From contig JABRWF010000003.1 of assembly GCA_018343915.1 (NCBI GenBank), positions 1,798,001 to 1,862,000 on the forward strand: a DNA stretch of 64,000 nt. Reading direction: 5' to 3'. Below, piece after piece: positions 21,654 through 24,498 of the stretch. This stretch comes from Agroathelia rolfsii (taxonomy: Eukaryota; Basidiomycota; Agaricomycetes; Amylocorticiales; Amylocorticiaceae). A program made the translations under genes and the position numbers. Position 1 is the stretch's first letter. Each line of letters begins with the position of its first letter. Under the pieces are notes generated by a model that did no database searches, was not told the DNA's origin, and saw nothing but the letters and a program-made list of their open reading frames with translations.

Positions 21654-24498
21654 ATGTCTTACCATCTCTCAGCCGTACGCCAGGACCACCATAACCTGAA
21701 TAGTCTTCGACAGACTCAGTCAGCCTACTCTCCGTCGTCGAAAGTCACTATTGCCGGCTCGGGCCTGTCCCTCGCCGAGCTTGTGGCTATATCTCGGTAA
21801 GTGACCATACCATGCCCGCTGCTGAAGCATGATTATAATTTGTATAACTCAGGTATCGTGCATTGACCACGCTTAGCTCTGAATCTACCGTGCGCGAACG
21901 TATCGAGAGTTCAGCACAGTATATCATTCAGCAGACGGCGCCGGGGAAGTCGGGCAGCGTCTATGGCGTGACGACTGGACTGGGTGCATCAGGTGCGTAC
22001 GATCAGTCATATGCGACCATATCATGCCCATCAACTTCTACTCACATTTTTACACATTCTCGGTGAACAGCGTGAGTAAATGAATGAATGAGTGCTTGAT
22101 ATTATTAGCCTTATCTCATGATGGTAACAACAACAGCCATTTGCGAACCAACGACCGGACAGCCCTTCAACGCGTGATACTCCAGAATCTCACTTCAGGC
22201 ATACTCCCCACCATACCAGCAGGACCACCAGATGCTGCCGTTAACACCTCTGTCATCTACGACAAATCCATCGACCCCGTGTCATTACTCTTGCCCGAAT
22301 CATGGGTCAAGGGCGCCCTTGCGTTGCGTATCAACTCCCTCATGCGCGGACACTCCGGTGTCTGTTGGACGCTGGTAGAGAAGTTGCATGCATTGTTGGA
22401 GAATGATATTATCCCGAGTCCGCCCCTGCGGCAGAGCATTTCTGCCTCAGGGGATCTTGCACCGTTGGGGTATATCGCTGCGAGTCTGACGGATGATGTC
22501 GTTGTGCCTGTTTGGAGCGGTAAAGGGTATGTATATTTAGCCCTTGATATGTAAAGGAGATATATTGATAACACAATCATACGTATATGGCAGACCAGAC
22601 CGAAGGCGCATCCCATCCATTCAGGCCCTACGCGAACATGGCCTGGACACATACACCTATGGCCCCAAAGAAGTTCTTGCTGTCGTAAATGGGACAGGGC
22701 CCAGCTGTGCCGTCGGTGCTCTCGCCTTGCACGATGCCAACGTGCTCGCACTCGCGGCGCAGGTGACGACGGCCATGGCAGTCGAAGCCATGCTCGGCAC
22801 ACCCGAGTCGTTTGAGTCTTTCATTCACGACATCGCGCGGCCACATGTGGGACAAGTCGAGTTTGCGCGCAACATTAGAGCACTGTTGAAAGACAGCAAG
22901 CTGGCGAGGGTGTTTGATGAGTCTGATCCGGCTCAGACGTTGAGGCAGGATCGGTACGGGCTGCGTACGGCACCGCAGTGGGTTGGGCCTCACTTGGAGG
23001 AGCTCGTTGCTGCCAGGAGGGTGATTGAAATTGAGATAAACAGTACCACTGATAATCCTATTGGTTTGTATTATTTTTCTCTCTTTTTTTTTTGATTGTT
23101 GAGCTTTTTTTGTCTGTGATATAGTTGATGTTCAGCAGGGACGTATCGTGTCTGGTGGCAATTTCCAGGTGAACCGCATATACGCAGCAGTGATCGTCAC
23201 GTGATATTAATGTCGTTATTTTTTCTCTTTGTCTAGGGCACGTCCATCGCGATGATCATGGAAAAGACACGGGTCGGACTTCAACATTTCGGTAAGATTT
23301 TTATCGACCTTGTACTTGACCCTATCTATGCTCTCATTTGCTGATTACATCTTTAGGCAAATTAGCATTTTCACAATTCACAGAGCTCATCAGTCCACAC
23401 ATGAATAGAGGTCTTCCACCCGACTTGGCTGCCTATGAGCCCTCGTTGGACTTTGGCGCCAAGGCTATGGATCTTGCTATGGCCGCATATATGAGTGGTA
23501 AATGCGGTTTTGGTTTTTCGATAATTACGATATAATCACTAATACTCAGGTGTTTTGTTTTTTGCTTTGGCGTGCATTGCATTATGTCGTCATTAGAGCT
23601 TTCATACGTGAGCAACACGGTCACGAACCACGTCCAAAGTGCCGAACATCATAATCAAGCAGTCAATTCGCTCGCTTTGATCTCGGCGCGGTATACATTT
23701 ACCGCGATTCAAGTGTTGTATATGGTGCGCGTTGATGCGCCCATCGTCATTAAAAAACATTTATCAACCTGCACTCTCTCCTAGATGTACTCAAACCACC
23801 TATGGGCCGTATGCCAGGCAATCGACCTGCGTGCCATGATCGCCAAGTTCCAATCCCGCATGGAGATCGAGATGCGACGCAGTCTCGAGCCCATCTTCAA
23901 AGACGACGAGGACGACGAACGTGGGAGAGAGACGGAACTTATCGAGCTGTCCAAGAACCTTTTCAACCAGGCTCGTGTGTCATTCAACCAGACAGCGCAT
24001 ATGGACAGTACGGCCCGGTTCACCGAGGTGCTCCGTCCACTTATTGCCGATTTGGACGTGTTCCTATCGATGCGCCATGGCAAAGGGCAAGGACGAAGGC
24101 TAGCGCAAGGACAAGGGCACGCGTCAGAACACGCGCAGTCATCGGTGGAGGAGGGGCCGTTCAACATTGCCCATTGGCATATCAACCTTGCTACGAGGCT
24201 TGGCGTGGTCTATCGAGAGACGAGGAGGGAATACTACGAATCCGGCGGAGCCGGGACTGAGAATCTTCTTGGAAAGACGAGGGCCGTGTACATCTTCGTT
24301 CGCAGGACTCTCGGCGTTCCAATGCGGAAAGGAGGGGACGCAGATATTGAGGGCTACGACTCGCAGCTTTCTCGTATCTATCGGTCGTTTGAAACGGGTG
24401 CGATCGTGGATGCTTTTCTGGAGGCCATGGATGGAGATTTGTCCGAGTTGTCTTCGCCGTCGTCGAATGAGCTGAAGAGGTCGAAGGCTCGTTTGTGA
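21654..24498 (+). CDS. PAL: Phenylalanine/tyrosine ammonia-lyase, copy 1 (PAL1)
   Basis: The enzyme removes ammonia from L-phenylalanine (and possibly tyrosine) to give cinnamate or coumarate in the cytosol. Ten exons: 21654-21796, 21853-21992, 22071 (one nucleotide), 22137-22526, 22594-23063, 23125-23168, 23237-23291, 23357-23497, 23597-23724, 23785-24498. They total 2226 nt, giving 741 residues. The MIO-forming Ala198-Ser199-Gly200 lies in [18 protein letters not shown], and the catalytic loop tyrosine is about residue 85 (VYGVTTGLG). NSTTDNP and the GGNFQGTS region are present. The residue aligned with the selectivity histidine of fungal PAL/TAL is Asn112 (LQNLTSG), which is unusual. A charged Gly/Gln-rich insert ([15 protein letters not shown]) is near residue 610. 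It is divergent from the dead P450 copy 1. Intact by eye. Confidence 0.95.

What the first reader, a model, noticed from the sequence alone, without database searches (positions are those of the whole stretch)
21993..22136. Single-nucleotide exon in PAL1
Between the exon ending GCATCAG (21992) and the exon starting CCATTTGCG (22137), the frame needs exactly one base. The interval is two well-formed introns (GTGCGT...GAACAG, 78 nt, and GTGAGT...CAACAG, 65 nt) flanking a lone C at 22071. With it the ten exons sum to 2226 nt in one frame; splicing the whole interval as one intron breaks the frame. One-nucleotide exons are extremely rare.
Basis: seen in the sequence. Interest (0 to 1): 0.88.

Follow-up and report, generated by a model that had tools for sequence, protein, structure and literature searches.

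The report
One-base exon in mushroom PAL genes
A fungal enzyme gene appears to contain an exon only one DNA base long, and three related genes in the same genome carry the same one-base exon, so it is very probably real and one of few examples known.

Summary
In a phenylalanine/aromatic-amino-acid ammonia-lyase gene (PAL1, window 21654-24498), exon 2 ends ...GCATCAG at 21992. Then come a 78-nt GT-AG intron, a lone C at 22071, a 65-nt GT-AG intron, and exon 4 (CCATTTG...). The ten exons give 2226 nt in one frame. Four paralogues in the same genome decide against them. PAL1-PAL4 (57-87% amino-acid identity to PAL1) all carry AG-C-GT between two normal-length introns at the same codon, and each needs the C. 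Among the splice models enumerated, only a 1-nt exon keeps the conserved loop (TGxGASAxxR) in all four. AACAGCGTGAGTRAAT occurs three times in the 37.7-Mb genome, each time at this junction (PAL1-3). In the same clade, 6 of 10 gene models from genomic contigs of other agaricomycetes are garbled at this site; two transcript-like homologues are not. No RNA evidence was available. The kind is known (plant APC11 and VPS55, Fusarium CYP621A, a remark on Cryptococcus), so this is a new member: a 1-nt exon shared by a paralogous gene family.

The parts
21654..24498 (+). PAL1 gene: aromatic amino acid (phenylalanine) ammonia-lyase, 10 exons, 2226-nt CDS, 741 aa
   Evidence: Pfam PF00221 440.4 bits; PDB 1y2m PAL aligned without gap through the loop
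21853..21992 (+). exon 2 (140 nt), ends GCATCAG, leaving phase 1 (first base G of an Ala codon)
   Evidence: 140 nt in all four paralogues PAL1-4
21993..22070 (+). intron A, 78 nt, GTGCGT...GAACAG
   Evidence: candidate branch sites CTCAC 26 nt and TTTAC 18 nt before the end
22071..22071 (+). exon 3: single nucleotide C, middle base of the split Ala codon G|C|C
   Evidence: shared by four paralogues; the residue is Ala in 228 of 245 homologues
22072..22136 (+). intron B, 65 nt, GTGAGT...CAACAG; its retention puts a stop codon immediately after (GCG TGA)
22137..22526 (+). exon 4 (390 nt), starts CCATTTGCG
38347..41179 (+). PAL2, second copy in the window, same 10-exon structure, 2193-nt CDS, 87% aa identity to PAL1
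38725..38786 (+). PAL2 intron A, 62 nt, GTATGC...AAACAG
38787..38787 (+). PAL2 single-nucleotide exon C (Ala codon G|C|T)
38788..38867 (+). PAL2 intron B, 80 nt, GTGAGT...CAACAG

Best explanation
Position 22071 is a genuine, probably constitutive one-nucleotide exon of a fungal PAL gene, inherited from the common ancestor of at least four paralogues. Two short U2-type GT-AG introns are removed one after the other by intron definition, each using its own donor, branch site and acceptor. Because the acceptor AG of intron A lies inside the U1 footprint of intron B's donor (AGC|GTGAGT), both splice sites flanking the C should not be recognised at once, so the introns should go sequentially. Whichever goes first, the second is then an ordinary intron with long flanking exons, so no exon-definition step on the 1-nt exon is needed. 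The joined C is the middle base of a split Ala codon (G|C|C, or G|C|T in PAL2) in the YGVTTGxGxSA loop (that its Tyr is catalytic in PALs is recalled). Shown: sequence, frame, presence in four paralogues, weakness of the alternatives. Inferred: actual splicing, its order, constitutive use.
For: (1) Four paralogues need it: PAL1 2226, PAL2 2193, PAL3 2079 and PAL4 2070 nt are all multiples of 3 with the C (PAL4 with one in-frame TGA); exon 2 is 140 nt in all four. (2) Each interval contains AGC|GTRAG with introns of 56-80 nt on both sides; 34 other introns of the five genes run 55-101 nt, median 62, while the undivided intervals are 114-144 nt. (3) AACAGCGTGAGTRAAT occurs exactly 3 times in 37.7 Mb, all at this junction in PAL1, PAL2, PAL3; control 0. 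(4) Enumeration: in-frame single-intron models number 21, 12, 11, 14 for PAL1-4; only 1, 0, 1, 0 have the right length and these two destroy the motif; of GT-AG two-intron models with a 1-30-nt exon (11, 20, 20, 49), those of right length (1, 1, 1, 2) all have a 1-nt exon C. (5) The loop segment is 10 residues in 221 of 227 covering homologues outside the clade and matches PDB 1y2m without gap. (6) Profile score: 1-nt model 863.9 bits, donor+4 857.9, acceptor 22108 851.5, donor 22063 840.2, one-intron frameshift 57.9. (7) Two transcript-like homologues (P0003, 683 aa on a 2177-bp contig; P0009, 624 aa on 2012 bp) have the exact length, whereas 6 of 10 models from long genomic contigs in the same clade are garbled here. 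(8) Purifying selection: dN/dS 0.076 PAL1-PAL2, 0.149 PAL1-PAL3.
Against: No RNA from this gene or species was available. Splice-site scores are mostly below average: of the 16 sites of introns A and B in PAL1-4, only 3 (A donors of PAL2-4) lie clearly above the median of 34 other introns; B donors rank 25-28 of 35, A acceptors 21-35 of 35, and PAL4's A acceptor falls below all 34. In PAL4 the 1-nt model is only fourth by summed site score, and PAL4 has two candidate lone Cs giving the same mRNA. PAL4 carries one in-frame TGA and may be decaying. The donor+4 rival costs only one residue and 6 bits.
Confidence: 0.95

Rival explanations
1. R1: a single 140-nt intron from a donor 4 nt downstream (21997-22136); the protein gains one residue (ASGAHLRT).
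For: In frame and stop-free; the annotated proteins P0002 (Dendrothele, GASGAVTRT) and P0013 (Mycena floridula, GGSGNNTRI) read as such a choice would.
Against: Donor scores 1.3 in PAL1, 1.7 in PAL3 and -2.7 in PAL4, at or below the bottom of the 34 reference donors (minimum 1.5), while the upstream donors score 4.9-9.3. In PAL2 the dinucleotide there is GC. It would be a 110-140-nt intron and leaves the shared AGCGTRAG in mid-intron unexplained. It breaks a loop length kept in 221 of 227 homologues outside the clade.
Confidence: 0.03
2. R2: a single 116-nt intron 21993-22108 (acceptor TTATTAG), nine extra residues ([14 protein letters not shown]); or a single 74-nt intron 22063-22136 with most of intron A read as exon, 23 extra residues.
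For: Both in frame and stop-free in PAL1. The 22063 donor model has the best summed site score of PAL1's single-intron models (8.7), the 22108 model the second best (7.8; its acceptor 2.9 against 2.5 for 22136).
Against: No in-frame acceptor like 22108 in PAL2, PAL3 or PAL4; insertions of 9 or 23 residues in a length-conserved loop; lower profile scores (851.5 and 840.2 against 863.9). The 22063-type model was not compared place by place in the other paralogues.
Confidence: 0.01
3. R3: stwintron or zero-nt recursive splicing: the 144-nt interval is a complex intron removed completely, with the frame shift tolerated or corrected by ribosomal frameshifting.
For: Fungi do have nested introns removed by consecutive splicing (starts of stwintron abstracts), and the AG-C-GT geometry resembles a recursive-splice point.
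Against: Removing everything truncates PAL1 to 107 aa and puts a stop 13-18 codons downstream in all four paralogues; low dN/dS over PAL1-PAL3.
Confidence: 0.005
4. R4: assembly or sequencing indel makes an artificial frame problem.
For: A single-base indel in an exon would mimic the need for one base.
Against: The same frame need and the same AG-C-GT recur in four genes at two places of contig C3.
Confidence: 0.003

Closest known systems
Arabidopsis APC11 single-nucleotide exon (Guo and Liu 2015, PMC4674806; part 1 of 3 read: abstract, results, start of discussion)
   Same: One base flanked by AG and GT, needed for the frame, missed by annotation (which had extended an exon into the intron).
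   Different: Base A in a 422-nt interval of a single-copy plant gene, proven by cDNA and mutant minigenes; here C, 114-144-nt intervals, four fungal paralogues, no RNA.
Plant VPS55 1-nt microexon (PMC8831610; passages seen)
   Same: 1-nt exon conserved over long times with a conserved donor GTRAGT, missing from the reference annotations.
   Different: RNA-proven; in flowering plants one paralogue clade has it and the other lacks it, and some plants retain introns alternatively.
Fusarium CYP621A 1-nt exon (Nelson and Syed 2026, PMC12940212; parts 1 and 2 of 3 read)
   Same: Fungal enzyme gene, 1-nt exon as middle base of a split codon in a conserved motif, 139-nt interval, the same candidate in all 24 genes compared; gene models wrong there.
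   Different: Ascomycete orthologues, base G, supported by 18 SRA reads; here a paralogue family whose relatives are basidiomycete, base C, no reads.
Cryptococcus neoformans exons 'as small as 1 bp' (PMC3990503; passages seen)
   Same: Basidiomycete nuclear genes with 1-bp exons.
   Different: One sentence in a genome paper; no gene named in the passages seen.
Spliceosomal twin introns (stwintrons; starts of abstracts, and one passage)
   Same: Two fungal introns so close that they must be excised one after the other.
   Different: In a stwintron one intron interrupts a splice element of the other and no exonic base lies between; here one base stays.

Membership tests
Single-nucleotide (1-nt) exon | Exactly one base between a 3' splice-site AG and a 5' splice-site GT, both introns with acceptable length and sites | tested here: met
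   AG-C-GT, introns 78 and 65 nt; PAL1's four site scores lie within the range of 34 other introns of these genes, in the lower half; PAL4's A acceptor falls below that range
Single-nucleotide (1-nt) exon | The base is needed to keep the reading frame and a conserved protein motif | tested here: met
Single-nucleotide (1-nt) exon | Conserved in relatives | tested here: met
   four paralogues in the same genome (extended 16-mer in three); other species only indirectly through garbled gene models
Single-nucleotide (1-nt) exon | Mature mRNA contains the base (cDNA or RNA-seq) | not testable with these tools
   no transcripts of this species were at hand
Aromatic amino acid lyase (PF00221), PAL branch | Profile match over the cut-off and the ASGD motif of the MIO prosthetic group | tested here: met
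   440.4 bits against cut-off 27.3; ISASGDL in the translation; that this motif forms MIO is recalled
Aromatic amino acid lyase (PF00221), PAL branch | Phenylalanine ammonia-lyase activity | not testable with these tools
   no assay; substrate not established
Stwintron | A splice element of an outer intron is interrupted by an inner intron, with no exonic base left | tested here: not met
   zero-base removal breaks the frame in all four paralogues

The most novel reading that the evidence does not exclude
The one-nucleotide exon is ancient and general in one clade of agaricomycete PAL genes (relatives annotated in Tetrapyrgos, Dendrothele, Sistotremastrum, Mycena and Fomitopsis). It has been kept through gene duplication and deep divergence as an AG-C-GTRAG junction, and it has been missed in public gene models because annotation programs cannot place it. 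It would then be the most widely shared 1-nt exon found so far in fungi, defined by intronic sequence alone.
Probability: 0.55. Interest if true: 0.65.

Novelty: new member of a known kind. Interest (0 to 1): 0.55.

Why it matters
It would be a further gene family with a single-nucleotide exon. In print I found three nuclear families (APC11, VPS55, CYP621A), a remark on Cryptococcus, and a mitochondrial case in placozoans (title). Four diverged paralogues in one genome give a natural series for asking which intronic sequences define an exon too small for any exonic signal. It would explain why PAL gene models from several mushrooms are wrong at this loop, and it gives annotators a concrete pattern to look for. 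The phase geometry makes retention of intron B stop translation at the next codon, so mis-spliced mRNA should be visible to decay (inference).

Tried and rejected
Introner or mobile-element origin of the introns: PAL1's 144-bp interval matched only itself in the genome. That search did not find even the PAL2 interval, so it only excludes near-identical copies. Zero-nt recursive splicing or stwintron: rejected by frame. Longer microexons: GT-AG two-intron models with a 1-30-nt exon were enumerated (11, 20, 20, 49 for PAL1-4); those of correct length (1, 1, 1, 2) all have a 1-nt exon C. DNA of relatives: scans of viral contigs and genome contigs with P0003 gave 3 and 12 pattern matches, none a relative. 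Papers: 'microexon'+'basidiomycete' 9 hits, none on PAL by title and abstract start; 'phenylalanine ammonia-lyase'+'microexon' 2 plant-infection papers; 1-nt-exon wording; 'micro-exon'+'fungi'+'intron'+'agaric' none; mushroom PAL gene structure, 9 listed, of which the Pleurotus pal paper gives 6 and 10 introns and no microexon in the passages seen. So a 1-nt exon in PAL was not found in print in these searches; most subscription journals are not held. That the junction is conserved merely because splice sites always are was checked: over 8 nt, B donors match 8, 4, 7, 5 in the four deep paralogue pairs against a mean of 3.36 for other donors (highest 6), but A acceptors (5, 3, 3, 1) are hardly above the mean 2.57. 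Extra conservation is thus clear only for the B donor of PAL1-3.

Counting notes: the 245 homologues are the union of the 120 best listed in each of three searches that had 6195, 2416 and 1555 hits. Five of the 245 do not cover the loop and were left out. P0010 (741 aa on a 2905-bp contig) was counted as a transcript in the script, but its contig is long enough for introns, so I now set it aside; it has the right length, and counting it as genomic gives 6 of 11. The clade was chosen after seeing the garbled models, and P0005 and P0006 are from one species, so the Fisher value is not an independent test. At the six other intron junctions looked at in the same ten models, 0-3 of 10 were odd. dS could not be computed for six of the ten pairs, PAL1-PAL4 among them, and is near saturation in three more.

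Full report
What is there. The window lies on contig C3 of an unnamed 37.7-Mb genome, evidently fungal. The gene at 21654-24498 encodes a 741-aa aromatic amino acid lyase (PF00221, 440.4 bits). Its best hits are proteins of agaricomycete fungi, several named phenylalanine ammonia-lyase, and entries named PAL are its best PDB matches. Exon 2 ends one base into a codon and exon 4 begins with the third base of that codon. The missing middle base is the C at 22071, flanked by GAACAG and GTGAGT.

Is it forced? Not by PAL1 alone. Enumerating GT/GC-AG single introns of 40-300 nt around the interval gave 21 in-frame, stop-free models for PAL1. The credible ones are a donor 4 nt downstream (one extra Gly), an acceptor at 22108 (nine extra residues) and a donor at 22063 (23 extra residues). 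They score 857.9, 851.5 and 840.2 bits against a profile of 245 homologues, compared with 863.9 for the 1-nt model and 57.9 for the whole interval removed as one intron. On its own that difference is modest.

The paralogues settle it. The 19 PF00221 matches in the genome fall into five genes, all on C3 (the search gives lower bounds). One is PAL2, in the same window at 38347-41179. PAL3 and PAL4 sit in tandem about 0.77 Mb away (L023), and PAL5 is a divergent copy (L024). PAL1-PAL4 all have the same arrangement: exon 2 of 140 nt, an intron of 56-78 nt, a lone C, an intron of 56-80 nt, exon 4. The split codon is Ala in all four (G|C|C or G|C|T). Amino-acid identity to PAL1 is 87.0% (PAL2), 56.9% (PAL3) and 61.7% (PAL4); dS is 0.93 between PAL1 and PAL2 and 2.28 between PAL1 and PAL3, and could not be computed for PAL1 and PAL4. 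The introns themselves have diverged, but in PAL1-3 the junction has not: PAL1 and PAL3 share an 18-base run, TGAACAGCGTGAGTAAAT. The pattern AACAGCGTGAGTRAAT occurs three times in the genome, once in each of PAL1, PAL2 and PAL3, and its reversed control not at all; PAL4 reads CATAGCGTAAGC there. AGNGTRAG with room for an intron on each side arises in 0.08-0.16% of shuffled intervals and is seen in 4 of 4. An acceptor like 22108 exists in PAL1 only. The donor+4 rival would need a GC donor in PAL2 and weak donors in the other three. In PAL4 two nearby Cs (L023 5518 and 5524) could each serve as the 1-nt exon with the same mRNA.

Protein evidence. The segment T-G-x-G-x-S-A-x-x-R is 10 residues long in 221 of 227 homologues outside the clade that cover it, and in PAL1-PAL5 under these models. 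The split-codon residue is Ala in 228 of 245 homologues. The 1y2m alignment runs through it without a gap.

Indirect evidence from other species. PAL1-4 fall in a clade with 16 of the 245 listed homologues (FastTree support 1.0, midpoint root). Of the 16, 13 cover the site. Ten are on genomic contigs of more than 150 kb, and 6 of these 10 have a wrong length exactly here: P0001 -5, P0002 +1, P0005 +1, P0006 +8, P0012 -4, P0013 +1. Two are on contigs hardly longer than the coding sequence, hence spliced transcripts or intronless genes (P0003, P0009); both have the exact length, as has P0010, whose contig could hold introns. Outside the clade 6 of 227 are odd. P0002 and P0013 read just as a donor+4 guess would read. 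Four members on long contigs (P0004, P0007, P0008, P0014) have the right length, so some relatives may have an ordinary intron, or their models were placed correctly.

How it probably works. Fungal introns this short are recognised across the intron (established knowledge). The U1 footprint on intron B's donor covers the final AG of intron A, so both sites should not be occupied together and the two introns must go in turn (inference). In PAL1 and PAL2 exon 2 ends in AG, so the donor context AGC|GTGAGT is the same before and after intron A is removed (sequence). The -1 base C is a poor U1 partner; the strong GTGAGT of PAL1-3 may compensate (inference); plant VPS55 likewise has a conserved GTRAGT donor after its 1-nt exon. 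If intron B is retained, translation stops at the next codon in all four genes; if the C is skipped, it stops 13-18 codons on.

Origin. PAL5 has one intron at phase 1 of the same Ala codon, preceded by a 9-nt exon. The simplest reading is that intron A is that old intron and intron B was gained one base downstream; sliding of either intron cannot be excluded. No near-identical copy of the interval exists elsewhere.

What is known. Single-nucleotide exons are proven in Arabidopsis APC11 (PMC4674806) and plant VPS55 (PMC8831610), and supported by reads in Fusarium CYP621A (PMC12940212), whose authors call theirs the first in a fungal gene. A 2014 Cryptococcus neoformans paper had already remarked on exons 'as small as 1 bp' (PMC3990503). 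The present case is thus a new member of a known kind. Its distinguishing points are the PAL family, four paralogues in one genome, and an extended conserved junction in three of them.

Limits. There is no RNA. Of the 16 splice sites of introns A and B in PAL1-4, only three score clearly above the median of the other introns in the family, and PAL4's A acceptor is weaker than all 34. PAL4 has a premature TGA and may be a pseudogene.

Noticed in passing
window 38347-41179: A second PAL gene (PAL2, 87% aa identity, same strand, same 10-exon structure and same 1-nt exon) lies 14 kb downstream of PAL1.
   Followed up: yes
L023 5138-7685 (G000 C3 about 1047637-1050184): PAL4 has one in-frame TGA where its sister PAL3 has an Arg codon (exon starting at L023 6703); otherwise open, so perhaps a young pseudogene.
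   Followed up: partly
L024 881-889 (PAL5): A 9-nt exon (GCGGCAGCG) at the same loop in the divergent paralogue PAL5, followed by an intron at phase 1 of the same Ala codon that is split in PAL1-4.
   Followed up: partly
window 23125-23291 and 39848-40014: PAL1 and PAL2 have an intron that divides a 99-nt exon into 44 and 55 nt; PAL3 and PAL4 have the undivided 99-nt exon, so another intron gain or loss in this family.
   Followed up: no
P0001, P0002, P0005, P0006, P0012, P0013 (public proteins): Annotated PAL proteins of Tetrapyrgos, Dendrothele, Sistotremastrum, Fomitopsis and Mycena have insertions or deletions exactly at this junction and are probably misannotated.
   Followed up: partly
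window 15143-15823: ORF that looks to me like the RNase H end of a Ty1/copia-type retrotransposon (recognised from memory; no Pfam hit).
   Followed up: no
window 46632-47333, minus strand: ORF matching class-II cAMP phosphodiesterase (PF02112, 98.3 bits).
   Followed up: no
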